Part shown: piece after piece, positions 6,407 through 63,000 of the stretch
How the letters are laid out: the number at the start of each line of letters is the position of its first letter
Position numbering within the stretch: position 1 is the first letter of the stretch
Origin: Nymphaea colorata
Taxonomy: Eukaryota > Streptophyta > Magnoliopsida > Nymphaeales > Nymphaeaceae
Reading direction: 5' to 3'
Length of the DNA: 64,000 nucleotides
Assembly (NCBI RefSeq): GCF_008831285.2
Contig: NC_045145.1
Coordinates: forward strand, 17,420,802 to 17,484,801
Made by a program: the position numbers and the translations under genes
Notes under the pieces: model-generated
What the model was told of the DNA's origin: nothing
Seen by the model: only the letters and a program-made list of their open reading frames with translations
Databases searched by the model: none

Positions 6407-8415
6407 CGCTTTTTCATCTTCTGTAAGCTTGCTCCACAGAAGGCCAATCTTTTGACTGATCGCAGTATCTTTTGCAGAATATGATGGCTTCAGTCTTGCA
6501 TACTGCTCCGCAAAGAAGAAATTATAACCACTCCTCTTAAGTTTTGGACGTGTGGGGTCTTTTGTTCTTGATCTATTTCTCTTCCTGCCATGGTGTTGAT
6601 CACTATGTGAAGTTGAAGCACCATTTATTTGATAGGACTGAGCTGACTCCATGTCAACGGGTGAATGATATAAGACGCCTCTTAGCTTCTCAGAGCCGAT
6701 ACTCACAGTAACTAAGTATCCATACTCAAACTTCCCATCAATAACTCCCTTTACAGTGTGATTTGGAGATAGCACAGGACTTGCTGCAAAATCATGTACA
6801 AAATTATAGACCTCCACGATACATGGCAGCATTCAAATCATATACAGTATTAGGTTTGATAAACCTAGACCAACAAACTCCACTATCTAAGATTATACGC
6901 ACAAAAGGTGGCTATCTATAAATTACAGCACTTCGGGATACTTTTTTTTTGTTTAAATTGCTACTAAATTGATCTACCTTTCTCAATCCTCCTCTCCTTT
7001 CTAGGTGTGGTACTTCTAACTTGTGCAGTCCCAAGGAGAGCAGCTGGATTTTGTGCTGCAAAGGATGTCAAAAAGTAAGACGTGGTTGTAGAAACTAATC
7101 ACACAAGAAAGATGAATAGCTTCTTTTAGAAAAGAGATGAACCTGCACTTGCAACTGGACAGCCTTGGGTGCGAAAGAAATAAACTTGTTCATAGTGGTG
7201 AAGAAGAGAGATATAATATCTTCGCAAGACAAATGATGCATTTGTGATGGTGATTGGAAAATTAAATACAGCAATTACATCCCTCCATTTTCTATCCCTT
7301 ATAACCTGGAAGACAGAAACTTAAGCCTGTACATGAAGATGTAAGAAAAAATAATAGTAACCACCGTAATTATAGACAATTTGTTGGAAATTTCTTCACA
7401 TAATGAATTTCTCAAGTAAAGGAAAAGAAAAAAATTGTCTCGGTACCTTTAAGAAATTATAGGACAAGGTAAAAGTTTTAAGCAATAGGGAAGAGCAATA
7501 CAGACGAGGAGGATATTCCATTTGCTCAGATATCACATCATAGAAATACTCAAATGATATCTTTGAGATGGCATAACAGTAAGTTGAGAAAATCAATCCT
7601 TTTAACATCTTAATCAAAATTTACAAGTATGAGAATATCGATTACGAGATTGTTCCAGATTAAAAAAAAATAGTATCAAGGATGTGTATTCGAATAGTCA
7701 GTTAAACACACCTTCTCAAGGCCACCTCTGGATGTAACTTCCACAAAAAGCCGATGCAGGTCTAGCGCCTTTCCTCCCATAATAGGCACCCTAGAATTTG
7801 AACCAGTTCAATCACTCAACCGATATCACAGGTGAGAGATAAAAGAAGTTATAAGAAGGTTGGAGAACATATTCAGAACAACGACAGCAGTAGACTGTTC
7901 ATAAGTTAGCATTCTCCCTCTATTGAGAGTTGGAGACCAAACAAAAAGCAGACTTTCCCAAAATAAATTTTCCAATTGATAAAAATAGTGAAGTTAACTT
8001 CACTAATAGGTCTAAGCAGCGAAGGTTATACGCAGAGCCTCTTCTTCACGATTGGTTTACAAAAAGGACAATTCAAAATTGCATGACTCACTGTCACCTA
8101 CAGTTTCTATGAGCATGTCAAGTCACAGAAACACCAATGTAAGACAAGCAACGGAAATACACTTTACGCTTGTAACCAGGTGCAACAGGATTAAGAGAAT
8201 AAAATCCACAGTTTGCAAATCCCGAGAACAAAATAAGCGCACGAACTAATCCTCAAATGCCATTATAAGACAACAACAAACTTTCACCCTTCAAGATTGG
8301 AGAAGAAGAAAAGAGTCAAATCCTCCAAACCAGATACGATCAAAGAAAACCAAGACCAAATGACTAATCTTCCGTAGTGAAGACCATTAATCAGCAAAAG
8401 AAGAAATTCAAAGAG

Positions 8416-8487
<72 letters not shown>

Positions 8488-9028
8488 GAATTGTATGATT
8501 CGCAGAATAACACCAACAGATGGGTACCCAAGTTCCCAAATGGACAAAATGAGAGGAAAAACCCCTTAGTCTTTCTGCAAAATGCTGCCATAAGCTCCCG
8601 ATACAACCATTAAACAACTCTGTCCCCGGGAGAAGGAGATGGAAAAAGAAAACCCCATAGAAGAGAGACCTTGGGCCATCCAAAAACAAGTGAAAAAAGA
8701 CAAACATCCTGAGGCCGCCATAGAAGAAACCAATGGAAGACAAAAAACATGAATACGCAGAAAAATAGAAGCAGGGTAACAACTAATAAGGAAGAAATAG
8801 CATCAACAATATACAAAAGAGAAAGAAACTCAATAGTGCATCATACATGAACTTTGTCCCCATCGATTTATGTAACCTCTCAAGCGTTTCCATGAAAACC
8901 GCTTCATTTGCGGCAACCTCTTCGTATGTTGCAGATGGCAGCGGGTATCCCTTCGCATGAGTAGGAGTAGATGAAGCATGGTCACTCGAGGCAGCCGGTG
9001 AAGCAAACGGGCTCCCCTGGTCTTGCAT
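6407..9028 (-). CDS. ARID-HMG box DNA-binding protein (HMGB9/10/11/15-type), 3' end not found
   Basis: Nuclear protein of the plant ARID-HMG family, which joins an AT-rich interaction domain to one HMG box and binds and bends AT-rich DNA. Exons read on the minus strand: 8847-9028, 7712-7790, 7143-7305, 6978-7055 and 6407-6783. All have GT-AG borders and matching phases, giving 293 residues so far. The ARID spans about residues 31-138 (LERLHKSMGTKFM, LDLHRLFVEVTSRGGLEK, then YYISLLHHYEQVYFFRTQG). A basic linker and an HMG box from about residue 244 (PKLKRSGYNFFF, IGLLWSKLTEDEK) follow. The start is the ATG at 9028; an upstream in-frame TTG is not used. Reading past the last donor gives Val-Trp-stop, so helix III of the HMG box is missing unless another exon lies further left. 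Intron 1 holds a 66-bp TA repeat. Family assignment is firm; the exact orthologue is not. Confidence 0.85.
8419..8484. repeat. (TA)n microsatellite in intron 1 of the ARID-HMG gene
   Basis: About 66 bases of perfect TA repeat between exon 1 (8847-9028) and exon 2 (7712-7790). Confidence 0.96.
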
Positions 9029-10669
9029 TATAATCTCCAAAGTCGGTTGGCAAAAGAAAAAATTTTAACCCAATCTTTTCAACTAACAGATACAGAAAAC
9101 CATAAGTGGAACATGGTATTGCAAGAGAAAATGATGTAATAAAAACCAACGAAATTGCAGGTTAAAAAGATAACAGACGGGTTATGATAACGAGAATTCT
9201 TTTGCAGTCTTCCCCCCCTATATTTTTGATGGTGGTAAACATGTGATCATAGGACAACTTGTTTGGCGTTTACAATTTTAGTTTGTCAGTCCCCATCTTA
9301 GTCTGCAGTCTTAAAATATTTACCACATGACCTCAGACTTAACAAAGAGAAAGCATTCTGTGGGCAAGGAGAGAGGAACTGAAATGAAAATGAAATATTC
9401 ACTTGCAAGTTGATGATGTTAAAGCAATAAATCTAGGGTTTTGCTTCCAAGACACGAAGGTTTTACTAGCATGGTCATGAGTCAGAGGGTCAATCGAAGA
9501 TGTTGGGTCGGCCCATGCTGTCTCACACTTTTGGTTAGAAAAGCTGCCATTCTAGAGGACCGGGCCATGTCCAACGACCATGTGGCGAGGGTTTTGGCGC
9601 CCACAGCAGCCATGAACATGATAGATGGTCGCTTCACCAATAGTCACTCAACCAGGGTCTGTGAAACCACCCACCCACCTGAAAAGTTGATTACTCTATC
9701 TCGTTCCTACCAACTAAATCAACGATCGAAACCTCTCTCTTAAGTCTTAAACAATCCGGTAGTTAAAAAGCACTACAAATTTCAAAATTTGAGACGCATT
9801 TCTTATGTAATCTGGTAACTAAGGCGGCCTCATTTTAGTCGCAGCAACATAGAAAAAATATACAACTGAAAAGAAATAGCCCTGAAGCTTCTCCCCCTCG
9901 TCGAGTGACAGCTATCCTGCTTTCCCCAATCCAAACCAGTCATATGCACAGGTAGACACGAGTTAATGTGACAGATCGACATTCAAGTGCATTTTAGTAC
10001 AGTCCAGTTAAAGGAGCTTGCTCACAGACAAGAAGGAGACCCTTTGGTTTCAAATGTTTGTCAAGCAACTATTTGCATTTGCTTCAAGGGACATAGCATA
10101 GTGGACAGATGAAATTTTTTTGAACTGCAAATGGTGGTTGTGTGACGTTTAATTGAGAGATGGCTTATTCCCTACCCATGTCACGAAGTGGCAGTACAAA
10201 TGTCATGAAGTAGCAGTAAAAAAAAAAAAAAAAGAGAAAAGAAGAAGAAGAAGATGTTTTTACGGTGTCTTCCCCACCAAACGGCCGTTAGCCAACTACA
10301 GTTAGATCTTCTCACAAGCAGTGCAAGAGCTCCCTAGCCGATACAAATAATTAATGGCTGTCTTTGAGCGGAAGCAAAGACAGGGAAACCAATCCAAGTG
10401 GTTTTCTGCAGTAAACTTTGAAATCAGTGTCTAAAGTTCATAAAATATTGATCACCACCTCTAGCTGTGGGCTCACAACATTTATTGCTTGAATTGCCCG
10501 CGGGAAACGTGAAAGTACTCAGCGGTGTTAGAACACCGATCCTTTCCATTACAAAGATGGAGTTTAACTTCGTATCTTGCAGTAATATTATAAGCATTAT
10601 GGTGTACCATGCCATCCCTATTTTACAAGTCATTGGGTGCGATGGTACATGGTAACATGGGGTTGTCAT
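9029..10669. other. Upstream region of the ARID-HMG gene, no gene recognised
   Basis: Presumed promoter and 5' leader of the leftward ARID-HMG gene, followed by intergenic DNA. The 100-residue frame at 9441-9743 has no resemblance to a family I know. An A-rich and GAA-rich tract lies near 10219-10253. Confidence 0.4.
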
Positions 10670-11177
10670 GGCATCTGTAAATGAGGGAGGAGGATATGAA
10701 GCATATGGAATATTAATAAATCTGATTTGAATCGGATATCTATCTGATTGAAACACTTAAAAAATCGAATATGAAAAATGATTATAAGATTGGACCGGAT
10801 CAGATTCAGATTTTTAAAATGACGTTCAATTGGATTTGGATTTGCTTTTAAATAAATATCTGATTGTATTCAAATATGGATTTAAGTTTAGATCTAATTT
10901 TAATAAATATCTTAGATCTAATATCCATGCATTTTGAAAGCGGATCTTAACATATTGTATGTGATTTGGATTTGGTTTCAAAGTCAGATTTGGATTCTTT
11001 AGTGAATTTTTAGAAAGTGGATTGTAATTGTGAATTCAGATTCACATATATAGTGTAAACTTTTCTTCATTTGAATTCAAACCTAATATGTAAATATTGA
11101 AGAAAGTGGATATGGTAAAGAATACATCCTATTTGAGTCTTATCCCTTGACATCCTTAGGCATCTGTGAAATGAGGG
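10670..11177 (+). repeat. Dispersed repeat copy 1, flanked by 18-19 bp direct repeats
   Basis: AT-rich element dominated by GGATTTGGATTT-like and AAATATC-like words. It aligns by eye with the region near 40 kb (opposite strand) and with 52.7-53.2 kb (same strand). Shared blocks include AATAAATATCTTA, CATTTTGAAA and TTTTCTTCATTTG. It is bracketed by near-identical sequences at 10670-10687 and 11159-11177 (GGCATCTGT, then AAATGAGGG), which look like a target-site duplication. No coding capacity seen. Class unknown. Confidence 0.6.
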
Positions 11178-13107: not shown

Positions 13108-13112
13108 CTCTC

Positions 13113-13168
<56 letters not shown>
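13108..13168. repeat. (CT)n microsatellite
   Basis: About 61 bases of nearly perfect CT repeat with two TTTC interruptions at its left end. Confidence 0.95.
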
Positions 13169-13171
<3 letters not shown>

Positions 13172-13262
13172 AATAAATGTCTGCACATGTCTAGTTTTAA
13201 TTTGGCAACTTATTAGTATAAGACAAGCCTTTAGAGTGGGCCTAATATATCAGTTTAGGTAT

Positions 13263-13342
<80 letters not shown>
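13263..13342. repeat. Compound (CT)n(TA)n microsatellite
   Basis: CT repeat to about 13287 passing directly into a TA repeat ending at about 13342. Confidence 0.95.
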
Positions 13343-13345
<3 letters not shown>

Positions 13346-29090: not shown

Positions 29091-32000
29091 TTAATCTGAT
29101 CTGCACGGCTCAGGAGAATCATCAAGTATAATTACTTCTTGAGCAGACCTGGCACCAAAGCGTGCAAGAGCCTCCTTCTCCAGCTTGTGAGCAAACTCCA
29201 AATTTTGAGCGTTAAAAGAGTTTAATTGACCACAACTTTGGAACAGCGTCCTATGCTGAAAGTAGTTCTCACTTTTAGCATCAAATACTGTCTGCGAGGA
29301 GAATCTAGCCAGATTGTCATTGTGAATACTACGGTAGCTTTTTTGTTGTGTAGGTAGCGGAATCCTAGGGTTGCCAAAATTGCCCGGAGACCTTGAGAGA
29401 GTTTCATGCTGGAAATGTGTAAAAACAAAAGGATCTTCTTGGACTGAAGGAGTTGAAAGAAGCTGGTTGGGCTTACACCCACAAGTCCCGGAAAAACCAA
29501 GATTCCTAACGTATTCAGAATTAGGATGATTGGTTTTACTACAAGGAGTACTGACGTGCTGCAGTACAGCATCTGCTTCACCTTTGCTTGCCACCATGAG
29601 GTTCTTCCCCATCAATCGCAGCACACAATTTGCAGTTGGCTGAACTTTACAATGATCAGATACCTGAGAAGCTGTGCCTCCATGGGGCCTTTGAATCGCA
29701 TCAGTTTGTGATTTTGTGGGAATGCCAAGAAAAGGTGAGCGCACAATTATATTGGTCATTTTATCAGCAGTTGCTGCCTGCAAGTCTTGTGGCAACTCGG
29801 GTACGAGATCCGAAAGGCAAGTGGATGCAGGGAATCCATTTTCCCCATGTACGCAACCATCAATAAATAATGGATAAGGATTGCTGTTTTGTGCCAAAAT
29901 ATGTTGACCTGCAGATACTGCACAAGAGCCTCTGCAACATATTCCCTCCCTCTGAGATGATGTATGATAACCTTGGCAACAACTTGTTTTGTTAACTTGA
30001 AAATGTTGAGTACCTGTAAATACCATGGATGCTTCAAAAGGTAAATCTGGGCTAATATTCTGCCAGCCTGGTATTCCATTTGGTGATGCAAGTTGCTGAT
30101 CTTCGAAAAAGTGAGAACAACTTTTCCTTGTGGAGTCAGAATCTTGGCATGGGGAGCATATGTTCATTTTGGACGGTCCAAAACATGATTCTGGCTCAAT
30201 AACTCTGCATATGGGCTCTACTGCAGTTGAAACACGAGCGCCCAACCTAGTGGAGGTAGGAGTTACCTGTGCTGCCAATATATCAAACAGGTTGCACTGA
30301 TATTCAGAGCCAATAAAATTTAGACAGCCCAAGTTTACGTGTCTATTTTGTTCAGCAGTTGATTTCCCCACAAATGCATCAACAAACACGTCTTCTTGGG
30401 AGGAGGTGAAGCTTTCCCCTTTCCCTTGGCATATAAAAGTATTAACTTGAGATATAGTTGCCTTGGCTTCAGAAACATTTTGCTTACTTTTTTCATTAAT
30501 CTTCTCATCCACAGTTTGGGAAGTATCATGGGCAGCCTTATTGCTTCCTTGATTGCTAAAAGAGCTATCTTCTCTAGATAACTCAGACTGCAAGGCTTCT
30601 GCTAGATTTTCCATGCAAGGTTCCAATTGTGTACCACCACTTGAGGGTAGGCATTCAGCTGAAACAGTTGCCATCTCTCCATAGGATGAAACTTTCGTGG
30701 GATCTCCAATACTATAAGATGTAGGAGCCAGCGGGTTGTGGACATCCAATGTCATTTCATCACCATCAGGTTCTTTTGCACCACCAAAATGCATATATTG
30801 TGGACTATCTCCACGATCCATAGTATCATGTGGCAACTCGTTAGGACCTGATCGTTTCTTCACAGTGAGTGGATTTTCATTATTCAATTTCTCTTCAGAA
30901 TCTAGTGCAGTGCCTTCCACAAGAGACAAGTAGTTTTCAAGCTTACTATCTTTAGTCTCTAGGGGACCTTTTGAGCAACCTAAGCTACAAGTTTCTTTAC
31001 CAGCTTGCAGAGTAATTGGGACACTGAAATTGCATGTCCTACTGCATCTGTTGTCTATACGACAAACTAGCTCCATTTGTTTGCCACTTTCCCTACTAGG
31101 TAGCTCTTCCCGATACTCTCTGGGAAAAGCTTCCTCAACATCCTTCAACTTGGATACTTTCTTAGCCATGTGACTTTTAGAGGAGAACTTCTTTCCCAAG
31201 GTTAGAAGCTTCTTTCCAGCAGAAGGACAACAATTCTTATAGGATAGTATCTGCAAGGTGCTTTGATCACCCTTAGCAGCCCCAGTTGCAGCTTGACAAA
31301 TTTCTCCTCCTTCACTGGGTGAATGAACAAAGGTTTCTGTTGAAATAGTTGAAGTTGGGTCGCAACTGGTGCATGTAGATGGATCACCATTGTGCACAAC
31401 ATTGTCCTTGGAGACATCCATATTTCCTTTGCATACAACTCTTTTCAGGTCTCTGCGTTTTGAACGAACCCAATGCTTTAGATGTCCAGAGGACCTTATT
31501 TTCTCTTGGGTTTTCTCATGCAGAGAAACTTTCTTTTTCTCCTTTTGATGCTCACATATCCTCTGTGCTCCTTCAGGCAATTCATGGTTCTGCTTATCAT
31601 GAAATACCACAAATCATAAGCAAGAATTAATTTCATTTTTGGTTACACAAAAAAAAAAAAAAAAAAGATAATGCTAACAAGGCTCTAGTCTAAGCTGAGC
31701 AAAGAACTGAAATCAATAGTTCGCAGTATTAACCTCACCAGCAAAAGAACAGATAATGGTAACAGCTTGTACAAAACATGAAACATAGATTTAAAAACGT
31801 GAAAACTGAATAGCAGTATCTCAAGTAGTTTGGCAAATCAAATCATCAGTGCCAGATGAATTTGTATTTTACATTTCTCAAAAAAAAAATGAAAAAAAAA
31901 TCTTATTATTGATAATTCGCCATAACATAATGAGATGTCAGAAAAGCATATTAGTATATTATATTGAATTAAAGCCGTCATCAAGGAGATAATAACTAAG

Positions 32001-34999
32001 CTGTAAAAACAGCAAGAATCATTCAAGACAGCATAAAAGCAAGCATAAATTACTAGAACACCCAACAATAACATCAAAGTCTTTTCAACTGTTACATAGA
32101 CATGCTAGAACTAGTACGCAACAAATCTAAATATTTGAATGACGAACATTGCAATCCAAGGCAATAAAAAGGGGAAGTCAAAATTTCACTAGCAGAAAAT
32201 TCAAACTCGTTACAGCTAGAGACAAATGTAGGAAGCACAGTTACAATACAACCAATTATTTCGCGACTTCTCTGACACTGAAACAAATACCCAAGAAATG
32301 TTAATATTCAACGCCATGAATTGTAATTTGAAGCCCAGAAAAGGAAGAGTTCAGATTCTTTTTACAGGAGAACGAAATAAAAAAGATAATTATTTTGACA
32401 TCCAAATGCAGCACGGTTTCTTTCCCATTCGAATGATATTAATTGTGATTCAACGTTAAAAAGGCAGGAATCAGATTTCCTTAACAGAGACTTCCAAAGA
32501 TATATATATGTCAAAATTTAATTATTATACCATCCACCCCATGTGTAACTTCTTCTCCACTTTTAGACACGATGGAATTTATAATCAATAGATTTTAGCA
32601 TTCCACTGATATGCTTTACAATTCAAAACGGGAAAGAGGAAGAACTAAAATTGTCCAACAGGAATCACAAACACATTTTCGGGTAAATAATGGATATGAG
32701 AAAGAGAACGGGTGATGATTTGTATTTTACTATTTTATTCCATACACCAGGCCGAACTAACACTGCCCATGTTACAGGCGGTGTGCCTTTCGGTCGCTCC
32801 TAACCGCTTGTAAGCCGAAGTCACCAAGAAAAAGCATTGTTACAGTGGCTTCAGCCAAACCAAGGCTTTACTCACTCTAAGTAGAAAAACCAATTTTTGA
32901 ATAAAAGGTACACGATATCATGTCTCTCAAATGCCGGCAAGAAGTAGAAATTCTTTCAAGAAAAATGAAAAACAAGACATAAGGAACTAAAAAGCAAAAA
33001 TATATCACCAGATGTAGTTTGTACCTGATTCTCAAGGTCTGTAAGCATGGTCAGTTTCTTGCCCTCGGTTTTGAGAAGTGAAGCTTTGGAACTGCTGAAG
33101 ACAAGGCTTCTCTTGTTAGAGGTAAGTGGACACCTTTCATCACTCTCACTCTTTGAATACTTACTCGACGAAGGACCCTCCTCCGAAGTCAACTGTGATA
33201 GCATACGAACCTTTCTACCGTTGGAGTCGACATTAACAGCGTCAGCATCACTCTCATCAGCAGAATTCACTTCAGCTGGCCTTGTTCTCTTGTTTTCTCT
33301 AAAATCTTCACTGGTTAATGACACCATAAAATTATTCAGTGTCCCTGTCGTGCCATTCGTCCGATCAAGGTGTTCAAGAGTGCATGGTCGTGCAGTTGCA
33401 TAGATCTCTTCTATTGATTTCATCTTTCTCGGCTTCACCTTGTGCCGCCTTTGCCTGATAGCTAGTGGTAGTTGGGTAGTCGAGTCCGACGCCAAGCATT
33501 GATCTATATGGGCATTCAAAGTAGTATTGGACGTCGATGAGAAATTCCTACAAACAGGGCATACCTTGGAAGCCATAGGATCCAGCAGCGCGCTCAACTT
33601 CGAAACGAACCCTTCGCATCTGCCGGATTCTGGCTTCATCTCCGAGCACTCCTTGCTTACAGTAAGAGAGCTCTTATCCCCGGGCCTTTTTGCTGGTTTC
33701 GAGCCACAATTCTCGTCCACATCCAACGAAGACTTGCTGTTGCAGAAGGACGGAGCCGGCTGGGAGGCGCCAACCACTGAAGGCTTTCGGCGACCAACCG
33801 GAACGAACTTAGGTGGCAGAAGAGTTTCTCTCACGAGGTCATCGTTGGTTATGGTAGAGTCGGATTCTGGCATCCCTTTGGGAGAAGAAGACGGTCTCGA
33901 GCTTGTCGATTCTTCCTGCTTGCTTGTAGCACCTAGTTGGTCTACGCACGTAGCTGATGTCCGTTGAAGGCCCCCACCAACATCGTCTTCAAGATCGAGT
34001 GCCTCACCAGCCACCTTGGTTCTTACAAGGTCAGAGTTTAAGAGGTGCCAAGGCTTGAAGGAAGTCGGCGGTTCGAAAGGTGGCAGGACGTCCGTCACTC
34101 CATGGTCAAGGCAGAGTTGCAGGTAGGGAGGATGGAATGGCCAGTTCTGCTTTATGCTCTTCGTCCTTGATTGACAGACGTAGTCTCTGCAATACCCAAC
34201 AAGATCTTGGCTTAAAGAAGTAAAGAAAAGGCTTGTTACCTCCATAACAGAAATTGGAAGAGACCATCTTGTGATAACCTCCGTGTAATGAACGTTTCAA
34301 GGTGCTTTCAGGTGTGCACATGAACCCAAATCCTTGACTGCCAACATTCGCTGCCAAGTTTCCTCCGCACAAGAAAAAAAAAAGTTCTTTGGGAATTATT
34401 TTCCATAAAAAATTCCATCAGATTGACGGAAATGTAAAGGAGGAGCCTCGGGTTCTAGGGTTTGATGTGTGCATGGGATCACAGTCGGCTCATTAATAAA
34501 GGCACCAAATAATGAAGCTTCATGCCAGATTTCTTCCGAGACTCCATCAGAAAAACAGACAGTAAGGCAAACAGTGCCATCTGTCCTACCAAAACCAAAC
34601 AAAGTAAAATCATCACGCTTTTTAAGTTTTTCTGAGTAATAGCCAGGTCGAGAGACCGCAGCCACAGCCTAGGTGAATCATTTGGACCTTCTCAATGGAA
34701 AGAAAACCCCCATTAAAAAAACTGCCGAAAAGTAAAGAGGAGAGGGAGAGAGAAAAACAAATAACGCAGAAAAGGACGAGAGAAGGAAAAAAGGGAAAAA
34801 GAAAAAAAATATATATGTAGGAAAAGAAAGGAAGTTACCTGATGGAGAAGCTCAGGAGATCTAGCTGGTCAAGTGTTGAGGTTGGCAGATCTGCCTCATC
34901 AAGGGATAGTTCATCGGGAGCCTTTTCATTGCTTCTCTTCTTCCTCGCAGAAACCTCAGAAGAGCACGGAGAATCTGAAGGGTTTTGAGTGGATAACAT
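29091..34999 (-). CDS. UBZ4 (Rad18-type) zinc-finger protein, HAPLESS8-like (tentative), 1273 aa
   Basis: Three coding exons on the minus strand, 34839-34999, 33025-34186 and 29091-31589, with GT-AG borders and phases that join exactly. Residues 1-54 begin MLSTQNPSDS and hold a basic patch RKKRS. Then come a conserved-looking DYVCQSRTKSIKQNWPF block and GVTDVLPPFEPP. The zinc finger is CPVC, 13 residues, then HIDQC (Cys263, Cys266, His280, Cys284), which fits the ubiquitin-binding UBZ4 pattern with its N-x-H-x-D-x-C end. The rest is long, Ser-rich and probably disordered. The C-terminus EVIILDDSPEP (VIIL at 1260-1263, then Asp-Asp) fits a SUMO-interacting motif. Likely nuclear. I believe this is the plant family containing Arabidopsis HAPLESS8 (At5g56250), supported partly by its position near a WRKY2-like gene; that identity is from memory. 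Biochemical role unknown. The start is the first ATG of a well-phased exon. Confidence 0.82.
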
Positions 35000-42343: not shown

Positions 42344-42346
<3 letters not shown>

Positions 42347-47956: not shown

Positions 47957-48988
47957 TCATAGGTCTGGCATATCCACAGAAATTTCTTCCAGAGACAGAT
48001 AGAATGGATCATCATAACAAGGAAGAACCTGTGCCAAACAAGAAAAAAAAATAATTAAGGCAAAACAACAAATAAGAATGTTTAAAAGGAATGAAGAAAC
48101 CAACATGCTGCAGGTAAAGCTTTTCCCTTCTTTCCTTTTATAAGCTAACAAATAACCAGAAGAAACCATATTTGATGATTCGTGAGCCAATAAATTGCAT
48201 AGTTGTATAAATGCCACAGGTCTTACCTCACCGAAACCAAGGTATACATCGCTATGAAGAGCATTAATAGCAGCGGCAGATGAATTGCTTAAGAGATCCA
48301 TGTCAAGCAAATCAGTGATGGCAGAACCATAGCCTCTATGAACCTTTGGAAGGCAATCAGCATTCCTGGTATGATCAAGAAGATCCTCCAAGCTTGAGTA
48401 TGCGGCTTGTGCCCTAGATGCACAGCAGGAGAAATCAGCATCAATATGACCAAGCCCAGCATAAGAAGAAACAAAGACTAAATGGTCATAGTAAGACCGG
48501 CTGAATGATTGAAATGGCTCAATGATTACTGCAAGTGGTACCTTACGTAACACGGGAACACAAATAAGGACAGGAACCTATCTGTAGAAGGCATAAAACC
48601 CAAACGAAGAGGAAGCTTAAGAATTCCAACCATTAGCCTAGGTCCAGGTTACATTTCTTGTGGTCCTACCACAAGCCGGTAAAAATATCAAATTTATGCG
48701 GTCACAAAACGACAAAATTATACAATGACTATCACAATGAGAACAAATCCTTTTTGTTTCTCATACCGCTACTTATGATTCACGTAGTTTGTTATTTTTG
48801 GCGATTTAATATAGAAATAATTTGCCACACTCGTTGCAAGATTTTCAGGCACCATAAAGCAATTGGAAACTGATACTGGAACATCGGTTCAAAGTTTAAA
48901 ACCTCAAATAACCGTAACTGGAAACCAACAATATTGATCGTGAGAACTTACCTGGGAAACAAAGTGGAAAGGGTAAGTTGCACACACG

Positions 48989-49023
<35 letters not shown>

Positions 49024-51629
49024 GACTGTCTTGAGACATCTTCTGAAAATATGAATACGTTTAGGGGAAGAAAGCACTAAACTTACTCTTGATTCAGACC
49101 AACGCAAACAAGGCAGTTGAGCTTTGTATTTTTGGCTTGATAGAGTCTTCGAACCAAAGGCAGCCTGCTGAAAAGATCTCGCAAAGCAGTATGAAAGACC
49201 CCAGCATCTATTGTATTGATATTCACCAGGCTGTCGTAACTGGTCCACTTGCCATTGCCCGGTGTTTCATTAAAGAAGTCATTGCATGGGTACATCCGAT
49301 TATGACAAATATCTCTTACAAGAGATCCGATGTGCTGAGAAGCCTCGTGCTCAACTTCTGATGCAGAGAATTCAGAAGAAACGTGACCTAGAATAGGATC
49401 AGCAATTGCTCCTGGAAAGTTCATGTCAAACATTTGGAATGAACAAGGCAGAAGCTGCTTCTCTTCCTGAGGCAAATTACCACAATTTGATAAAACAGGT
49501 TCCGTCGAAGACTCAAGCTGGGGCTCGTTTGATGGCATCATCGTTGCGTCATCTACCTTAGGAGGTGGCTCAACTACAGAAGCCATTTCCACGTCAGATG
49601 GAAGGTTCTTGTCATTTAAAATTGATGCTTCACCTCCGAAGTTCTGAATGAGAAAGTAATCATCAGCATGTGAATTCCGTGGTGATGGCCACTCTCTGGG
49701 CCTCTTAGAACCCACGACGATGAGGTCTTTAAAGTCTTTACAGTCTCTTACGGGGGACATTGATACACTTCTGACACTAAATGATGCCCTGTTATCTTGG
49801 AGAGGCATCTCAGTAGTCATATCACCAAAGCCGGGTGGATATTTCTCGACCTCTTCTTGGTGCAAACGAGATTCACCTGAGATGCTCCGTACGTTAGCAC
49901 CTTCCTCTTGATTCGCATCAATTGTTGGAACTGGTTCTACAAACTCATCGGTGTCTCTAACGGTAGCAACTGCAGGAACATCAGGGCCAGTTAATCCAGT
50001 TCCCTGCAGCTGTGACTCACTCGAAGAGATACCGACCGAGTTATAGGCCACCTGGTCCTTCCTATCTTCTACATCAATGCCGTCAACGGTGGGCTTGTTT
50101 TCTGAATTGGAAAATGAGGAACCAACTAATCGGGAGTCATCTGCTGTCTGGTCCTTCATATCTGCTACGTTCATGGCGTCAACGGCGGGCTTGTTTTCTA
50201 CATTCGAAAATGAGGAACCAACTGATATGGGATTATATTCTACGCGGTCCTTCATATCTGCTGCATCCGCGGCATCCACCATGGGCTTGTTGTCTGAATC
50301 GAAAAACGAGGAACCAATTGATGTGGAGTTATATGCTGCCTTGTCCTTTATCTCTGCAACACCCAAGTTATCAACAGCGGGTTTGCTTTCTGAATTGAAA
50401 TAAGATGAGACAACTGCTCCTTGATCAGTTTGTGACGGGGGCCTTCGTTTCAAAGAAGAACGGGCCCTGGTAGGCACTTTAGCTACGTTACAGAACTGCA
50501 ACAAATCACTGCCTAAGGAGGCCGTTGAATTGTTCAAGTTAATTTTCTTGCAGACATTGCTGTCCTCCATTTTACAATCATCTGCAGCCGCCTCTTTGTA
50601 GTCGTCATTTTCAGTTTGTTGGGGTTTTGAACTTTGCTTATCATCCATCACATCCATGCTTGCTACAGTATCAGCATTTTTACCACCTAAAGGTTCTTGT
50701 ATTTGGGCTTCCTCCAGGTTATTAGTCATCAGTTTCACATCATCAGTGATAGAGCAACCGTCTTTCAGCTTCACATCATCAGTGATGGCAGAATTGTCTT
50801 TCCTACTACTCGAGGAACTTTCCCCAGGAAGGGCACAAGTCTCAAGCTCCGAGCTTGAACCACCAGCATTTTCATCTGCTGGTGTGCGAAAAGGCGTATC
50901 ACTAACTTTCCGCGTCTCTTCTCCGTCAGTATCAGCCAGTTTATCACCACGGCAGTTGGGAGCATCTTCCTCACTCTCGGGCATTTCAGAGAATGTAGCG
51001 GGCCTCTCCGAACTGTGGCCCCCAGGCCTTCCATTTTCCCTACTCCAATCAGAGCCATAGCCTCTAAACGAACCCGCCCTGCGTCTCCCTCTTGTTCTCG
51101 ATCCTGGCTGCTCATCGGCAAACCTCCTCCTTCCATAGAAAGGCACATCCGAGTTCCCCACTTGCACAGACCAAACATCATCGTCTCTACCAGGCACACT
51201 GACGTCATGCCCTGCGTGCCCCAAACGAGCGAGGGCCGAAGTCCTGCCGTCCGACTGAGTCGGAAGGCTTCCCTTATCACGCGACCTGAAATCCTGAAAT
51301 TCACCCGCATAACCTTTCGAACTCCCGTTGGCCCACCGACCAGGCAGCAAATGTGCCGGCAACAGGCCTTGAGAAACCAAGTACTCGGCAGCAAGCCTAC
51401 CTGCTTCCATCAGAACATCACCTCTCCGAGGAGGCGGAGGGGGGGGTGGTGGCGAAGTATAATGTTTCGCTGGGCCCCTATTGTAAGCGCGACTGTATCC
51501 CCTATACTCCTGGCTGTAGAAGCCCTGGCCACGGACCGAATTCTCCGGCGATATTCGGCCGGCGCGCAAACCCACCCCTGGATTCTTCGACCTTGGTCCA
51601 TCTCCGGGACTTCGGCGTCTGGCTTGCAT
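47957..51629 (-). CDS. Plant-specific protein of the At4g26450 family, 933 aa, function unknown
   Basis: Three exons on the minus strand, 49087-51629, 48227-48413 and 47957-48028, with GT-AG borders (strong GTAAGT donor after exon 1) and exact phase joins. The N-terminus is Arg/Gly-rich (MQARRRSPGDG, GRISPEN, RGQGFYSQEYRG). A run of Pro follows (about residues 60-67), then the conserved-looking RGDVLMEAGRLAAEYLVSQG (69-88). An FCNVAKVPTRARSSLKRRP block (379-397) precedes four tandem 32-residue repeats (409-536). The C-terminus from exons 2-3 includes AAYSSLEDLLDHTRN and ends ISVDMPDL. It strongly resembles my recollection of the uncharacterised Arabidopsis protein At4g26450 in the N-terminal and KVPTRxRSSL blocks. 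Mostly disordered and acidic; the Arg/Gly N-terminus might bind RNA, but that is speculation. Start: first ATG of the long frame. Confidence 0.85.
48979..49023. repeat. (CA)n(TA)n microsatellite in intron 1 of the At4g26450-like gene
   Basis: CA repeat followed by a short TA repeat, lying 64-108 bases inside the intron from the exon 1 donor. Confidence 0.93.
50022..50405 (-). repeat. Four in-frame 96-bp tandem coding repeats
   Basis: Within exon 1 of the At4g26450-like gene the protein repeats a 32-residue unit four times (residues 409-440, 441-472, 473-504, 505-536). Shared positions include S-(F/Y)-x-(N/D), then KP-x-VD, then KD near position 20, then GS or SS at the end. The units are diverged, so the array is not a recent slippage product. 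Confidence 0.9.
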
Positions 51630-52500: not shown

Positions 52501-52564
52501 TGAATATAGTCGACTAACTATCGCATTCCATTCCATGCATGCCTACTCTATCTCTTATATTAAA

Positions 52565-55942: not shown

Positions 55943-56126
55943 TTTGATGATGTTGCATGTCCGTTGCGGAGTATAGGTCAATAAAGGTACACTTGCTTTA
56001 CAGCAATCTGGGATCTGCAGTGATTTGAGATCATTTTGATGATGTTGCATGTCCGTTGCGGTGTATAGGTCAATAAAGGTACACTTGCTTTACCGCAATC
56101 TGAGATCTACAGTGATTTGAGATCAT
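55943..56126. repeat. 92-bp tandem duplication (two units)
   Basis: Units 55943-56034 and 56035-56126 begin TTTGATGATGTTGCATGTCC and differ at about four positions. They lie about 520 bp upstream of the RCC1 gene start and are not in a reading frame. Confidence 0.92.
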
Positions 56127-56641
56127 TATAGATTTCAAGTCAAACCAGTTTCGTATCCAACCTTAAATTCATAGGAATCTTACAATGCACATCTTTGAAT
56201 ACAGTTTCATATATGAGATCCGAGGCTATCAACAATTCTCAAACAGCCATCAAAGTTGAAGTAATGTCACCAAAGTTCTGACCACACAAACAAACACGCT
56301 CTTAAACGAGAACAATGTAACCCGGGTGAAGTTTTTCTAAAGAGATTCAGTCACCATTTAGTCCAAAGATGTCCCAAAATGTGACGGTTTAATCCACCTT
56401 AAAATATTTTTCCAGTTATTAAACGCCCATTAGAATTGTTGTTGAATTGTTAAAATCAGAAAAGTACTTTTTCATTGATCAAAATAGAAAACGCCGTGTC
56501 TTTTGTGTCCAAGTTCGAAGAACAAAGTTCGAATGAGAGAGTTTTGTGACTTTAGCAGTCTAGGCATCCCCGTGACGTGCATAGATAGGCAAGACATCGT
56601 TGCCGACGAGGGAGAGACAGAGAAAAGAGGGACGGATCGCG

Positions 56642-58870
56642 ATGCAGAAGGCTCGGAGTCTTCGGCAATTGGTCAGCACATGCTTCTTGGGCAGTGCCGC
56701 CGACGCTTCACTATCTTCAGGCCCAGGGGGACGACGCCTGTTTAGCCAACCGTCGGAATCTTCTGTTTGGAGCTTCGGTGATGGGAGCCATGGGGCTCTT
56801 GGCTTGCCCCTTCTCGTGGGCAGCGACGTCTACGAGCCCACTAGGGTTCCCGACCTTCCCTCCGACGTCCGCGCCGTCTGCGCCGGCCATTACCATTCTC
56901 TTGCCGTCACCTCCGCAGGTGAAATCTGGGCGTGGGGTCGGAATGATGAAGGTCAACTTGGCAGGGGACAACTTCTTGATTCCAGGTTATTTCTACTGCC
57001 TTTTCTGCCTCTTTACTTTCTATGCTTGAAGTGACAAAAAGAATGTTCAATGAAATTAAGATTTTGATCCCTTCCTCGTGTGGGGCGTCATTTATCGAAC
57101 TGTTGTTCTTGATGGCAGGGATGAATGGAGCCGGCCTGGGAGAGTACAGGGGCTAGATCACGTCAGAGTGAGGAGTGCGTTTGCATCTGGTGTTGTTTCA
57201 ATGGCGGTTGGTGACGATGGCTCGTTGTGGGCCTGGGGGAGATCGAAACGCGGACAGCTTGGGCTCGGCAGAGGAATCCTAGAGGTTCGGTTACCTACCA
57301 AGGTTGAAGCACTAGCAGGGGAAGAAGTGGCTAAGGTATGATTATGCAGTTGGATTGCTTTTGTTACAATTTTTCTGCAATTTCACTGCAGCTTGTCATT
57401 TTTTGTCCTGTGATCATGTGAATCGAGATCATTGAGCTCTTCCCTACTGGTGCTACACTGCTACTAAAGCTGAAGCGCTAGCAAGGAAGGCTAATGTATG
57501 CACCATGAATGTGAATACAGATTGCTGTCTCATAATTTTCGTGCAATTGCATTGCGCCTGATCCTTTCTCCTACTCTTAAGTCTATAACGATACACGGAT
57601 CCTGACCTTTGTGCTTACGTTGTGGTGCTATATGTTAAAGCAAGTGTATCCATTGGAAAAGCTTCTATTTCAATAAGTTCAAGAGTTCAATACCCTGAAT
57701 CCATCTTTAAGTTGAAAAATCAAGACTTCAATAATTGACTACATCTCTGCAGCTGAGTTTACTTCGAATTGAAGTTGGCATAAACAAAAGAGGTCATAAT
57801 TCAATACTCTGAACACATCTCTCGATTTAAAGAACCAATGCCTGGTTCGCCGCAGTTCAATGCTCTGATGCTGCAATTCTACTAACTCAACCTACAGTGG
57901 ACCGAAGAGAGAAGATCCGTCCAGTGTTATATATCTTTGATTGTTCTCCCTTGCAACAGGTAGGACTCGGATGGGGCCACGCTCTGGCGCAGACCAAAGA
58001 TGGAAAGTTGTACGGATGGGGCTACTCAGCAGAGGGAAGGTTGGGAAAACTTGGAGAAAATTTGGAGCCCACTCGGCCTTCGTATTCTGATTATACAGAA
58101 GTTGGCAAGACAGCTAGCGCGTGCAGTGATTCAGCGCTAAACATCGCAGCTAAGATGGTGGCAGAGGACATTGAGAAAGAGAAGAACATGCCTATTGTTT
58201 GGGAGCCTTGCCAGGTGCCTGAATTACATGGACTGAACGTTATGGATGTAGCTTGTGGGCATGATCATTCTTTAGTCCTCTGTTGTATGTCTCCTATACC
58301 CTGATCTGTGTTTCATTTGCGCTGCAAGTATTTGTGGGATGTTTTTGTTTGTGACTTTGTTGTTAATTTTATCATGCTTTAGGCACTGGTCTTCTGCTAA
58401 GTGGAGGAAGCAACGTATACAATCAGCTGGGCAGAGTTCCTGCTCAAATCCAGTCACTGCAGCCGATCGACTTAGAATACAGGCCTTATGCTGTATCCTG
58501 TGGTCTAGGACATTCTCTCGCATTATGTTTGAATCCCTCGTGTGCAATTGCAGATGCAACTCCCAGCTTATTTTCATGGGGATGGAATCTCACTTCTCAA
58601 CTTGGTCGAGGGGGTAGGGAGGACATGCCGTCTATGGTGGAAGCCTTAAAGGGAAAGAAAATTAAGAGAGCTTGTGGTGGCCGTGTGCATTCTGTTGCTG
58701 TGAGTTCTCAAGGGGAGATCTTCTCATGGGGCTCAGGGCGAAATGGCAGGTTAGGGTTAGGAAGCTCAGCAGATGAGCCAGAACCCACCATCATAGAAGC
58801 TTTGCAGGGTTTGGAGGTTTTGGAAGCAGTTTGCGGTCATGATCATAACCTGGTTCTGGTTGCTGAATGA
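56642..58870 (+). CDS. RCC1-family beta-propeller protein, probably organelle-targeted, 457 aa
   Basis: Four exons, 56642-56985, 57119-57335, 57960-58284 and 58383-58870, all GT-AG with matching phases. The first about 45 residues are Arg/Ser/Ala-rich and lack acidic residues (MQKARSLRQLVSTCFLGSAA), like a mitochondrial presequence. RCC1 repeats then run to the end: WSFGDGSHGALGLP, IWAWGRNDEGQLG, LWAWGRSKRGQLGLG, LYGWGYSAEGRLG, LLSGGSNVYNQLG, LFSWGWNLTSQLG and IFSWGSGRNGRLGLG, seven blades in all. RCC1-like proteins in plants include UVR8 and the RUG proteins; some RUG members act in mitochondrial RNA splicing. The leader and closeness to the RUG1-type layout suggest an organellar role, but the orthologue is uncertain. 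The start is the ATG at 56642; the in-frame codon further upstream is TTG. The stop is 334 bp from the convergent WRKY stop. Confidence 0.9.
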
Positions 58871-59204
58871 TAAGCAACCGCAGAGATGGTGAAGTTACAC
58901 AAGCATAGTTAGAGCATTACACAGACATAGAGTCCTTCATCGGTCCGATCATCTACTGTAAGTTGTTTTGTCTCACAGCGAGAATTCAGGAACCTGAATT
59001 TGGACGTCTTACTCTTAGGTTTGTAGTTATTCCAAAACGTAAAAAAAAACAACTGAGACATGGGTCCTTTGATTCCTTGTATTCGGCAAATAATATATTT
59101 TCTATATATATTAAACTCAACCAATATGCCTTTCAGAAAAAAAGAGGACTAGCTTCTTTCTATTTGACATGTACAGCAAAAAAATTGTTCTTCAATGTGT
59201 TATC
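58871..59204. other. Shared 3' region of convergent RCC1 and WRKY genes
   Basis: Only 334 bp separate the two stop codons, so both 3' UTRs must lie here and may overlap. A-rich stretches near 59040 and an AATATATT-like run near 59095 could serve polyadenylation on either strand. Confidence 0.55.
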
Positions 59205-62200
59205 TTACATCTGTGGTCCTAGCGGAAGTGTGCCCATGATCTGATGATACAGTGACCCGTGCGTACCAGGCATTCCAGATTCAAATACGGGTTCCTCCTT
59301 CAGCTCGCCAGGCAGTCTTGATGGTGGCGCCACTTCGGTCAGCTTGTGCTGCATCAAATATGGTCCAACACCCAGCTTCTCATGGCCAATGGGAAGCCCT
59401 GAGAATTTGAAGTTTCCAAGTCCCATCTGCTGATTCAGTGGGAAACTTGAAAGACCAGAATAGAGAGACTGTCCCATCTGCGGTGTGTTAGCAGGACCAA
59501 ACCCGGGCAAGGATGGCATGCTCAATCGTTCATGCAGATTATTGAACCTCATGATGTTGTTCTGTTGTGGCACAGGCTCTGGCTTGAGGATGTGAGACGA
59601 CGAAGCTGGTGCAGTTCCCATGCTGGAGGTTGTGGAAGTAAGATGGTTGCTGCCAGTGTTGCTTCTAGCAGCAGGCACGTCATGGTTATGTTTTCCTTCA
59701 TATGTGGTGATCACAGACTTGAGGTCATGGGATGCCCTCTCCACATGCTTCCTCACCGGGCACCCTGGGCTGGTGCACTTATAGTAGCTCCTGCAAACGT
59801 TTCAGATTCGAAAAATGAATGGTAGCAGTTGCTTTTTTTTTTTCGTCAAAATGCCTTAAAGCAGTTTATCAGGGAAGAAATATAATTTGGACTGACTACG
59901 AGAGCCAAGAACTGGTTGAAATCATTTATCAAAGAGTGATTTTTGAGTGCCTCTGATTGCAATCGCATAAGATAAAAGTGTCCAACGGTAACTTGATAGC
60001 CTAGATATTGTTAAGCAATGAAGAGTTGAAGTACCTAGGATTTGGATTTCCTTTAACCACCTTCTGCCCATACTTGCGCCAACGGTATCCATCATCAAGG
60101 ATGTCAACCTCACTGGTTGTCTGAACTACAACTCTTGGTTCACGAATGCCTCTGGATGTCATTGCAGCATCCACGGCACAGCCATCCTTTTTCCTGCAAA
60201 AACCAGGAGTGAGCAGTTGCTAGGCAAGTGATTCATATGGTACGTGCTCTAACATATGCAAAAGGAGTAGATTTGAAGAGATTAATAAGCATATTGCAAA
60301 GAGATTCACCTTCTCTTTGATTCTAGCTCGTCTTCATCACCCTCATCTCCTAGTGACATGCTGAAATTTGTGGCCATCTCATCATCATCATCGCCACCAG
60401 ATAAGGTGGATGAGATCTCTGGCGCATCAGTCATCTCATGATGACCGAAGCTTCGGGACTGAGCACTAATAGATTGATTACAGAAATCAGTACTGGGGGC
60501 AAGGGAAGTCATCTCCGAGGAATCAGCCTTCCAGTCCTGGCTACCTGCAGCGGTCTCTAGTTGGTTGCCCTTCCACACTGGCTGACTCTCTGCAGTCTCG
60601 TGTAGTCCTTGGTCTTGGCGATCCAGGACTGCATCTTCAATTGCAGCCAATGCACCAAGTGATCGTCGGCTGGGGGGAGGTTTGGGGTGATTGTGGGCAC
60701 CCTTGTAAATGATTTCAGTGATGTGCCCATCGTGAGCACGCTCAATCTTCTTCCTCACTTGACAGTTTGTATGAGTACACTTGTAATAGCTACGAGGAAA
60801 TTCACTACTTTTCACCTGCTTTTGACCATATTTCCTCCAGTTGTATCCATCCTCCGAAGATACTCCAACAGATGCAGGTGCAAAGGATGTCTCCTTATCT
60901 CCATCATCATCTAGATGGTCCTCAGTTGGAGGAGATTGTTCACTGCAAATGATACCAACGGAAGCTTGTGTATCGGATGTAGCAGTTTTTATGTTACTCT
61001 CTCCAGATGACAGTGTGAGAGAATCTGCTTGATTATATGACTCGTTTTGGTGTTGGCCCTCTGCTTGTGTTTCGAATAGGAGCTTGGGGGCAGCATTTTG
61101 AGCCTCAATAAAGGGTTTGGGCAGGAATGCGTCCTCAACTCTGGACCATGAAGGCTCTTGAATGGTGGAAGATGCCTGTACAGAAGGGGAAATGGAGTCA
61201 TGAAAGCATAAAGTGACCAAATCACATCCAAATCTAGCATGGTTTATGCTGAAATATCCAAGCATACCAGTGTCCCACATAATGCAGTTAAAAGCTCCAC
61301 AGGGTTTTTGGTGATCCGGAGAGATCCAGTTCCAAAGAAAATTCTATCCTTTCCATAAGAGCCTACTACAGCTACAATATGCGTAATCTAATTGCACTTT
61401 CTTTATTCTCTAGCTGGGATGGTCTGGCCACTTCTGGATGACTTAAAGACTACCGAACACTTAACCTCGAGGTCATATAAACCGACCTCCTAGCTGGTTG
61501 TCGGAAGTTCATATTGTTAACAGTAGGACCAACATTTTTGGACGGGAGATGCATCTCTATTCTAGTTGCCCTGTTCTGCTGGTTGTCTGGTTATTCTTGG
61601 TATGCAACGTTCGGTAACCCTCCCTTGCTCACCAGGAAAGAAAGGCTATTTTTCATGGAAAAAGTGGAAAAGCCCTTAGTACAGGACTAAAGGGTCTCAC
61701 CTGGTTTCCTGAACTCTGGAAGCAGGACACAGGTCCTCCAACATGAGGCTTGAAGGCAAACGATGAATCACTATATTGTTCACATGTCCGTTGTTCTTTG
61801 CCAGCAGCAGCAGAAACTCTGGTTGTATGTGTGATCGTGGAATCGTTTCTTTGGCTGAGCGACGGTAAGGGAAATGCACCAGTCGTTGGAGAAGGTTGAG
61901 CCTGAACCAAAATCAACCGAATTGTTAACCAGAGATCAAAATGAAATCTTCAACTTCGACCACCATGACCAGATCTTGGTAAAGCAACCCATTTCGATCC
62001 CGAAAAAATTATCATGAGATGGGCTGCCATCACGGCAGTCCAGAAAAGGAACTTCCTCAAAAAAAGAATGATTTCAGACTCGCAAATCAATTCCTCGAAA
62101 ACTACACACCAATCTCTGGTGGCTGATTTTCATGTAGTCGGCAGATCACAGTTTCCTGGTTGTGCAGCACTCTCCTCACTGCAGAGGCAGGGAACCTATA

Positions 62201-62521
62201 TTTCATCTGTGCCACTCAAGCCATGTGCAGAGAGTGGCCAAACTTTGCTCAGATCTAGGTGGGAACTCTCCCATTCTTTCTACATTACAGTACATGCTAC
62301 AATGATTTCCACCCTGTTCTTTATTCTACTTGCGCTCTATTTTGTCAAAATTTACTTCTCTATTGGAAGTCATGAGGCAGTCAACAACCAGGAGACCAGA
62401 AGAGACAACAGAAATTTATCGGAGATCTATCCATCCGAAGAAGCAACTGGAAATCCCTCCAAACCGTTACCACCGAGATAACAAACACGCGCGCGCGCAC
62501 TCACACGTACAAATACACGCA

Positions 62522-62560
<39 letters not shown>

Positions 62561-63000
62561 GTGTTGCAATTCCTTGCCTGAGAATTGAAAAGGAAAACTG
62601 GGGAATCGAGCAAGGTGGTGGGGCTTAGCCCCGGAGGAATGGTAAGACACGGCGATCGAGCGCCACGGGGGGAAGCCAACGCGCCATCCCCCAACCGAAC
62701 CCGCGCGGTGTTCAACCTGGGGGCGCTGAACCCCGCTCTTGCCGCCACCCTCTCCCCGAGTCCCCCGACCGCCGCCGTCGGCCTCCTCCCGCAACTGAAC
62801 CCGCCGAAGCTCCCAGAGAGCTCGTTTTCCCTTTCCGCCGCAGAAGCCGTACCGTCGCTGCTCCCCACCACCGCCCCACTCTCGCACGCCATTCCGGCCT
62901 CCACCCGCTTCTTCATGCCGGAAATAGCGGCAAGATCGTCGTCGAGGAAGGAAGGAAAGCTCGCGTCCGCGAACGTGAAATTATTGTCGATGCTTGCCAT
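59205..63000 (-). CDS. WRKY2: Group I WRKY transcription factor, WRKY2/34 clade, 744 aa
   Basis: Sequence-specific nuclear transcription factor that binds W-boxes (TTGAC C/T). Five exons on the minus strand: 62578-63000, 61701-61901, 60310-61175, 60035-60193 and 59205-59790; phases join exactly. An N-terminal Ser-Pro cluster, the usual MAP-kinase target, runs over SP at 116, 126, 133 and 145 and spans the exon 1/2 junction. WRKY domain 1 has WRKYGQK at 321-327 and zinc ligands Cys341, Cys346, His369, His371. The basic ESKRRKKD stretch (about 493-500) is a likely nuclear signal. WRKY domain 2 has WRKYGQK at 535-541 and ligands Cys555, Cys560, His584, His586, with the conserved intron in the Pro-Arg codon. 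Acidic GGDDDDE and GDEGDEDE runs lie between the domains. [14 protein letters not shown] after domain 1 favours the WRKY2/34 clade. Intron 1 appears to start with GC rather than GT. The symbol marks the clade, not proven orthology. Confidence 0.93.
62486..62560. repeat. (CG)n, (CA)n and (GA)n compound microsatellite in WRKY intron 1
   Basis: Alternating CG (about 62488-62498), then CA, then a GA tract ending at about 62560. On the transcribed sense this is a CU repeat then a GU repeat starting about 18 bases after the exon 1 donor. Alternating purine-pyrimidine DNA of this kind can adopt Z-form. Confidence 0.92.

What the first reader, a model, noticed from the sequence alone, without database searches (positions are those of the whole stretch)
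6407..63000. Possible ancestral gene block that is split across several Arabidopsis chromosomes
The window carries ARID-HMG, a WD40 C2A9.03-like relic, a UBZ4/HAPLESS8-like gene, an At4g26450-like gene and a WRKY2/34-type gene. From memory, Arabidopsis has ARID-HMG next to this WD40 family twice (At3g13350/At3g13340 and At1g55650/At1g55680). It also has the WD40 family, HAPLESS8 and WRKY2 near one another (At5g56190, At5g56250, At5g56270), and WRKY34 next to At4g26450. No single Arabidopsis segment holds all of them, but together they reconstruct this order. That fits a pre-duplication linkage group followed by reciprocal loss.
Basis: partly seen in the sequence, partly recalled or inferred. 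Interest (0 to 1): 0.7.

Follow-up and report, generated by a model that had tools for sequence, protein, structure and literature searches.

The report
Ancient linked genes, four water-lily copies

Summary
The gene block is real and its linkage is old, but the window is not a "pre-duplication" block. It lies in a 407.8 Mb genome that fits Nymphaea colorata. No Arabidopsis sequences were available, so I tested the idea inside the same genome. Relatives are linked again in three segments: C3:26.70-26.75 (FPWD, HAPLESS8-like), C2:8.65-8.67 (FPWD, WRKY), C3:3.66-3.77 (HAPLESS8-like, WRKY, ARID-HMG). Five such links lie within 110 kb; 0.04 were expected and 0 of 200,000 random placements reached five. 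Ks pairs the window with C3:26.7 (1.16, 1.24) and C2 with C3:3.66 (0.82, one gene), near the published Nymphaealean duplication peak (~0.9); between the pairs Ks is 1.7 to saturated. Two rounds of duplication with reciprocal loss fit best: the window's FPWD decayed while its C3 twin looks whole. The Arabidopsis side rests on published locus numbers and on sequences recalled from memory; the recalled WRKY tree does not resolve the age of the older split. Ordinary paleopolyploidy, unusually legible.

The parts
4180..9028 (-). ARID-HMG protein gene, no stop seen in the matched exons; at least five exons, ends approximate; HMGB10/11-type in a tree with recalled rows, though HMGB15 scores slightly higher by raw bits
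17088..22218 (-). FPWD (WD40, C2A9.03-like) pseudogene in place, exon-like spacing, 5 stop codons in the aligned frames; query residues 95-171 matched at most weakly (E 0.12)
   Evidence: sister of the copy at C3:26698347-26707342
29094..34999 (-). HAPLESS8-like gene, exons 34999-34839, 34186-33025, 31589-29094 (second junction weakly scored, 1.3 and 1.8)
   Evidence: paralog C3:26744310-26745488 at 51%, first-exon region 80% identical in DNA
47957..51629 (-). At4g26450-like gene, main exon 51629-49087, tentative tail exon near 48022-47960; one match in the genome at E 0.001
   Evidence: no Pfam match; family name recalled
56642..58867 (+).
   Evidence: next best matches to its last exon are 31-45%
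59208..63000 (-). group I WRKY gene, WRKY2/34-like
   Evidence: summed tblastn bits of recalled proteins: WRKY2 406, WRKY34 347, WRKY20 333, WRKY10 118

Best explanation
The window is one of four surviving copies of an ancestral flowering-plant gene neighbourhood (WRKY2-type, HAPLESS8-like, FPWD, ARID-HMG, perhaps with the At4g26450-like gene). An old duplication made two blocks, A and B. The later Nymphaealean whole-genome duplication doubled each: A = window (C8:17.42-17.48) and C3:26.70-26.75; B = C2:8.65-8.67 and C3:3.66-3.77. Different copies were then lost in each (fractionation): in the window FPWD decayed by stops and gaps while its C3 twin looks whole, and near the C3 twin no WRKY, ARID-HMG, RCC1 or At4g26450-like gene was found. 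The separate Arabidopsis clusters are best read as the same neighbourhood thinned independently. Shown: four linked segments, two tiers of Ks, the decay. Inferred: that the copying events were whole-genome ones (for the B pair this rests on a single shared gene), how old the A/B split is, and the homology of the Arabidopsis clusters.
For: Nearest of the compared group I genes to the window's WRKY are C2:8.67 and C3:3.67 (8 loci compared, three further group I places at C4:11.93, C7:7.87 and C7:20.86 not compared). FPWD at C3:26.70, C2:8.65, C10:8.76 and the window relic; HAP8-like at window, C3:26.74, C3:3.66; ARID-HMG at window, C3:3.77, C2:19.44. Five links within 110 kb, 0.038 expected, 0 of 200,000; with about 80 WRKY loci instead of 8, 5 of 100,000. 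Same order and strand of the shared genes in window, C3:26.7 and C2. Ks: FPWD relic-C3:26.7 1.16 [0.87-1.67], HAP8 window-C3:26.7 1.24 [0.96-1.73], WRKY C2-C3:3.66 0.82 [0.60-1.18]; WRKY window-C2 1.73 [1.24-saturated], window-C3:3.66 2.39 [1.41-saturated]; FPWD, HAP8 and ARID A-against-B saturated. Trees: FPWD relic + C3:26.7 (97/93), WRKY C2 + C3:3.66 (99.8/76). Published Nymphaealean WGD, Ks about 0.9 (PMC7015852, passages). DNA identity at and beside HAP8 exon 1. Arabidopsis locus numbers, some recalled: 7 pairs within 10 loci, 0.11 expected, 0 of 100,000.
Against: C3:3.66-3.77 has another order and strand (HAP8-like on +, ARID-HMG 98 kb from WRKY), and three of the five links come from this one segment. 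C2 and C3:3.66 share only WRKY. C2:8.58-8.74 holds no match to ARID-HMG, HAP8-like, At4g26450-like or RCC1. RCC1 and the At4g26450-like gene have no second copy and say nothing about the duplications. The intervals of WRKY A-against-B Ks overlap those of the A pair. RraA, between HAP8 and WRKY2 in Arabidopsis by recall, is on C11, not linked. One FPWD (C10) and one ARID-HMG (C2:19.4) lie outside. In the WRKY tree recalled WRKY2/34/10 stand together apart from all water-lily copies (100/98), and window + C2 + C3:3.66 form a weak group (24/30), which if true would make the A/B split of WRKY specific to the water-lily line. By raw bits the window ARID-HMG is a little closer to recalled HMGB15 than to HMGB10. 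No real Arabidopsis sequence was compared.
Confidence: 0.8

Rival explanations
1. Only the window and C3:26.7 form a duplicated block; the other linked copies come from separate small-scale duplications or moves.
For: C2 and C3:3.66 each share few genes with the window and C3:3.66 is rearranged.
Against: Both nearest relatives of the window WRKY sit beside other members of the block; random placement does not give this.
Confidence: 0.12
2. One reading: the window keeps the unduplicated ancestral order and only Arabidopsis duplicated and lost genes.
For: The window holds the largest set of these genes in one place.
Against: The genome it fits has its own duplication (PMC7015852, passages); there is a paralogous block at C3:26.7 with Ks near that event, and an FPWD relic in the window.
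Confidence: 0.04
3. The genes stay together because of a shared function or regulation, not merely common descent.
For: WRKY34 and WRKY2 act in male gametogenesis (PMC4022456, abstract and passages); one FPWD cluster is described as largely pollen-specific (PMC4964407, passage); HAPLESS8 by its name is a male-gamete mutant (recalled).
Against: The copies lost members freely; an FPWD inside the block decayed; gaps are 7-100 kb; no expression was tested.
Confidence: 0.04

Closest known systems
Nymphaealean whole-genome duplication blocks of Nymphaea colorata (PMC7015852, passages seen)
   Same: Within-pair Ks 0.82-1.24 around the published peak of about 0.9; two copies of a region with gene loss.
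   Different: The passages that I saw do not name this block; here an older tier of copies is also visible.
Fractionated paleopolyploid segments of Arabidopsis (alpha/beta/gamma; recalled)
   Same: ARID-HMG beside FPWD on chr1 and chr3; FPWD, HAP8 and WRKY2 on chr5; WRKY34 beside At4g26450 on chr4 by locus number.
   Different: Water lily lacks those duplications (recalled); its copies arose separately, so shared linkage would be older than both.
FPWD (Fungal-Plant WD) gene family (PMC4964407, PMC4686805, passages seen)
   Same: The relic and the C3, C2 and C10 copies match a recalled plant FPWD query; five Arabidopsis members in two clusters.
   Different: PMC4686805 reports other conserved neighbours (trehalose-6-phosphate phosphatase, GH3, actin), not this block.

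Membership tests
Nymphaealean WGD block pair (window with C3:26.7) | At least two paralogous genes in the same order and strand | tested here: met
   FPWD and HAP8-like on both, minus strand, same order
Nymphaealean WGD block pair (window with C3:26.7) | Ks near the published peak of about 0.9 (0.7-1.2 used there for dating) | tested here: met
   1.16 (interval 0.87-1.67, one side a pseudogene) and 1.24 (0.96-1.73, point value just above 1.2)
Nymphaealean WGD block pair (C2:8.65 with C3:3.66) | At least two shared paralogs in order | tested here: not met
   Only WRKY is shared; FPWD on one, HAP8-like and ARID-HMG on the other. The pairing is therefore proposed, not filed.
Nymphaealean WGD block pair (C2:8.65 with C3:3.66) | Ks near the peak | tested here: met
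   WRKY 0.82, interval 0.60-1.18
Pre-angiosperm (epsilon-type) paralogon, A against B | Several linked families split into two lineages older than the Nymphaealean event | tested here: met
   WRKY 1.73 and 2.39, FPWD, HAP8-like and ARID-HMG saturated; WRKY intervals overlap those of the A pair
Pre-angiosperm (epsilon-type) paralogon, A against B | A and B lineages each have Arabidopsis members in gene trees | tested here: inconclusive
   ARID-HMG: window + HMGB10 (93/94), C2:19.4 + HMGB9 (98.5/99), leaving C3:3.66 with HMGB15 (66/57); FPWD: recalled FPWD on the A side of C2 + C10 (82/83); WRKY: recalled WRKY2/34/10 apart from all (100/98), window with B at 24/30.
Block collinear with Arabidopsis At1g55, At3g13, At4g26, At5g56 | Best hits of the window proteins at those loci | not testable with these tools
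   No plant genome other than the window's own was found to be held; locus numbers from papers only
Group I WRKY | Two WRKY domains | tested here: met
   WRKY domain whole in one exon, second half of another in a later exon, first half of it at C8:17480829
ARID-HMG | ARID domain and HMG box in one gene | tested here: met
   HMG_box 25.5 bits (cut-off 25.4); ARID 23.5 bits on one exon of several (cut-off 24.1); tblastn of recalled ARID-HMG proteins over five exons
HAPLESS8 family | Similarity to the At5g56250 protein | not tested
   Sequence not held; resemblance recalled
At4g26450 family | Similarity to the At4g26450 protein | not tested
   Sequence not held; no Pfam model matches

The most novel reading that the evidence does not exclude
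The A/B split is a piece of the duplication that preceded all living flowering plants (the debated epsilon event), still readable as microsynteny: four linked families (WRKY2-type, HAP8-like, FPWD, ARID-HMG) each keep one older lineage in A and one in B inside a single water-lily genome, and Arabidopsis HMGB10/11 against HMGB15 are its descendants.
Probability: 0.45. Interest if true: 0.6.

Novelty: new member of a known kind. Interest (0 to 1): 0.42.

Why it matters
Evidence for duplications older than living angiosperms comes mostly from gene-tree dating (recalled); linked families that split together in one early-diverging genome would give a positional test. It also shows how scattered Arabidopsis clusters can be tied together by an outgroup lineage, and gives a clear example of a gene (FPWD) decaying in place while its duplicate stays whole.

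Tried and rejected
Searching the gaps of the window for further genes of the block: 20 chosen reading frames against Pfam, none over a cut-off. RraA (recalled neighbour of WRKY2 and HAP8 in Arabidopsis) has one match, on C11, not linked. COP9 subunit 6 (PF13012; recalled neighbour of WRKY2 and WRKY34) could not be searched: 16 requests did not complete. A genome-wide ranking of the window WRKY exon, to place the three group I loci not compared, also did not complete six times, so I do not claim that C2 and C3:3.67 are the only WRKY2-type relatives. Solved-structure search of the ARID-HMG exon gave only general HMG boxes. Paper searches for paired locus numbers gave nothing. I looked for an earlier description of this block only through the listings and the passages seen; supplements were not open. 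In the co-location count the places C7:16.27 and C11:16.55 were dropped as showing one domain only; the count was repeated with about 80 WRKY loci. The gene joiner failed for ARID-HMG, RCC1 and WRKY; their exons were used singly.
Full report
What is in the window. Six genes or relics were found. On the minus strand, from high to low coordinates: a group I WRKY gene (63000-59208), an At4g26450-like gene (51629-49087 plus a tentative tail), a HAPLESS8-like gene (34999-29094), a decayed FPWD (WD40) gene (22218-17088) and an ARID-HMG gene (9028-4180). The HAPLESS8-like and At4g26450-like exons match no Pfam family; their names rest on recall. The FPWD relic keeps the order of the protein and an exon-like spacing, with 349 of 446 query positions matched and 5 stop codons in the aligned frames, so it looks like a gene that died where it stood, not a retrocopy.

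Where the window comes from. The tools place it at C8:17420802-17484801 of a 407.8 Mb genome with 783 contigs; all WRKY matches listed fall on contigs C1 to C14. The published N. colorata genome is 409 Mb on 14 pseudochromosomes with a Nymphaealean whole-genome duplication, Ks peak about 0.9 (PMC7015852, passages). The species name is my inference; no tool stated it.

The test that could be made. No Arabidopsis, Amborella or rice sequence was at hand, so I asked whether the same families are linked again in the same genome. FPWD: C3:26.698-26.707, C2:8.649-8.658 and C10:8.759-8.766. In the aligned codons the C3 copy has one stop, at query position 121 beside an intron edge, the C2 and C10 copies none; 430, 424 and 366 of 446 positions are matched. 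So the C3 and C2 copies look whole, and C10 was seen in part. HAP8-like: C3:26.744 at 51% identity, and a distant one at C3:3.6585-3.6594. WRKY: among the 8 loci compared, C3:3.67 and C2:8.67 score best against the window gene; three other group I places (C4:11.93, C7:7.87, C7:20.86) were not compared, and the search that would have ranked them did not complete. ARID-HMG: C3:3.766 at 58% and C2:19.44 at 50%. At4g26450-like: window only at E 0.001. RCC1: the next best matches are 31-45%. The families therefore meet again in three places: C3:26.70-26.75 (FPWD, HAP8-like), C2:8.65-8.67 (FPWD, WRKY) and C3:3.66-3.77 (HAP8-like, WRKY, ARID-HMG).

Is it chance? Links between families among the non-window copies (3 FPWD, 2 HAP8-like, 8 group I WRKY, 2 ARID-HMG) within 110 kb number 5, with 0.038 expected and 0 of 200,000 random placements reaching 5; at 50 kb 3 against 0.017, 1 of 50,000; at 200 kb 5 against 0.07, 1 of 50,000. 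With about 80 WRKY loci it is 5 of 100,000, with the two nearest WRKY copies alone 0 of 100,000. The cut of 110 kb was chosen after seeing the data, and three of the five links come from the one segment C3:3.66-3.77.

Two tiers of duplication. Ks (Nei-Gojobori on aligned codons, codon bootstrap) is 1.16 [0.87-1.67] for the FPWD relic against C3:26.7 (340 codons), 1.24 [0.96-1.73] for HAP8-like window against C3:26.7 (392 codons) and 0.82 [0.60-1.18] for WRKY C2 against C3:3.66 (273 codons), near the published peak. Older: WRKY window against C2 1.73 [1.24-saturated] and against C3:3.66 2.39 [1.41-saturated]; FPWD C2 against C3:26.7 and against the relic, HAP8-like C3:3.66 against both A copies, and ARID-HMG window against C3:3.66 saturated. 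The WRKY intervals overlap those of the A pair. Trees: FPWD relic with C3:26.7 (97/93), WRKY C2 with C3:3.66 (99.8/76). DNA at HAP8 exon 1 is 80% identical between window and C3:26.7, and 83% over 133 bases of what my model makes intron 1. The reading is block A (window, C3:26.7) and block B (C2, C3:3.66), each doubled by the Nymphaealean event, with A and B separated earlier. The B pair shares only one gene, so it is proposed, not proved.

Loss pattern. In block A the window lost FPWD (relic) and C3 keeps it; C3 shows no WRKY, RCC1, At4g26450-like or ARID-HMG match in the 40 kb examined (30 kb above HAP8, 10 kb below FPWD), and searches place none there. In block B, C2 keeps FPWD and WRKY, C3:3.66 keeps HAP8-like, WRKY and ARID-HMG; the 160 kb of C2 examined has none of the other window genes. 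This is reciprocal loss inside one genome. Where two or more shared genes can be compared in order, window and C3:26.7, and window and C2, agree in order and strand; C3:3.66 does not.

The Arabidopsis side. Published locus numbers: FPWD At1g36070, At1g78070, At1g55680, At3g13340, At5g56190; HAP8 At5g56250; WRKY10 At1g55600, WRKY2 At5g56270, WRKY34 At4g26440, WRKY20 At4g26640; ARID genes At1g04880, At1g76110, At3g13350 (PMC3485569, passage). At1g55650 as HMGB11 and several WRKY numbers are recalled. Seven inter-family pairs lie within ten loci, 0.11 expected, 0 of 100,000 random placements; they fall in three clusters, and those on chr1 and chr3 are probably duplicates of each other (recalled), so they are not independent. 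The order on chr1 (WRKY - ARID-HMG - FPWD) differs from the window.

Recalled sequences, leads only. Against this, summed bits (my addition) are about 317 for HMGB15, 308 for HMGB10 and 271 for HMGB9. In the FPWD tree the recalled protein stands on the A side of C2 + C10 (82/83). In the WRKY tree recalled WRKY2/34/10 stand together apart from all water-lily copies (100/98) and window + C2 + C3:3.66 form a weak group (24/30); taken at face value that would make the WRKY split a water-lily one. So the age of the A/B split stays open.

Against. C3:3.66-3.77 is rearranged and wide; RraA is not linked; COP9 subunit 6 could not be searched; one FPWD and one ARID-HMG copy lie outside; the At4g26450-like and RCC1 genes have no second copy.

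Verdict. An ordinary process, paleopolyploidy with fractionation, in an unusually clear case.

Noticed in passing
window 56642-58867 (+): RCC1-repeat gene on the opposite strand from its neighbours, with no close relative found for its last exon in the genome (next best matches 31-45%).
   Followed up: partly
window 50038-50400: A 96-base tandem repeat, 3.8 copies, lies inside the open frame of the At4g26450-like gene, which would make a 32-residue protein repeat.
   Followed up: no
window 20215-20396: A stretch inside the FPWD relic is 92% identical to C3:26.7753 and, in part, 79% to another place in the same 30 kb; probably a mobile element.
   Followed up: no
window 55943-56127: A 92-base unit in two head-to-tail copies, 95% alike, upstream of the RCC1 gene.
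   Followed up: no
L030-L031 (C2:8.686-8.693): Two AT-rich runs of similar long frames in opposite orientation; one frame has a peptide like an aspartic protease motif (motif recalled), so perhaps a retroelement.
   Followed up: no
Arabidopsis At1g55650 (PMC6914339, passages): Listed with imprinted genes bound by PHERES1, maternal read ratio 1.0; it is close to WRKY10, recalled as the endosperm regulator MINI3.
   Followed up: no
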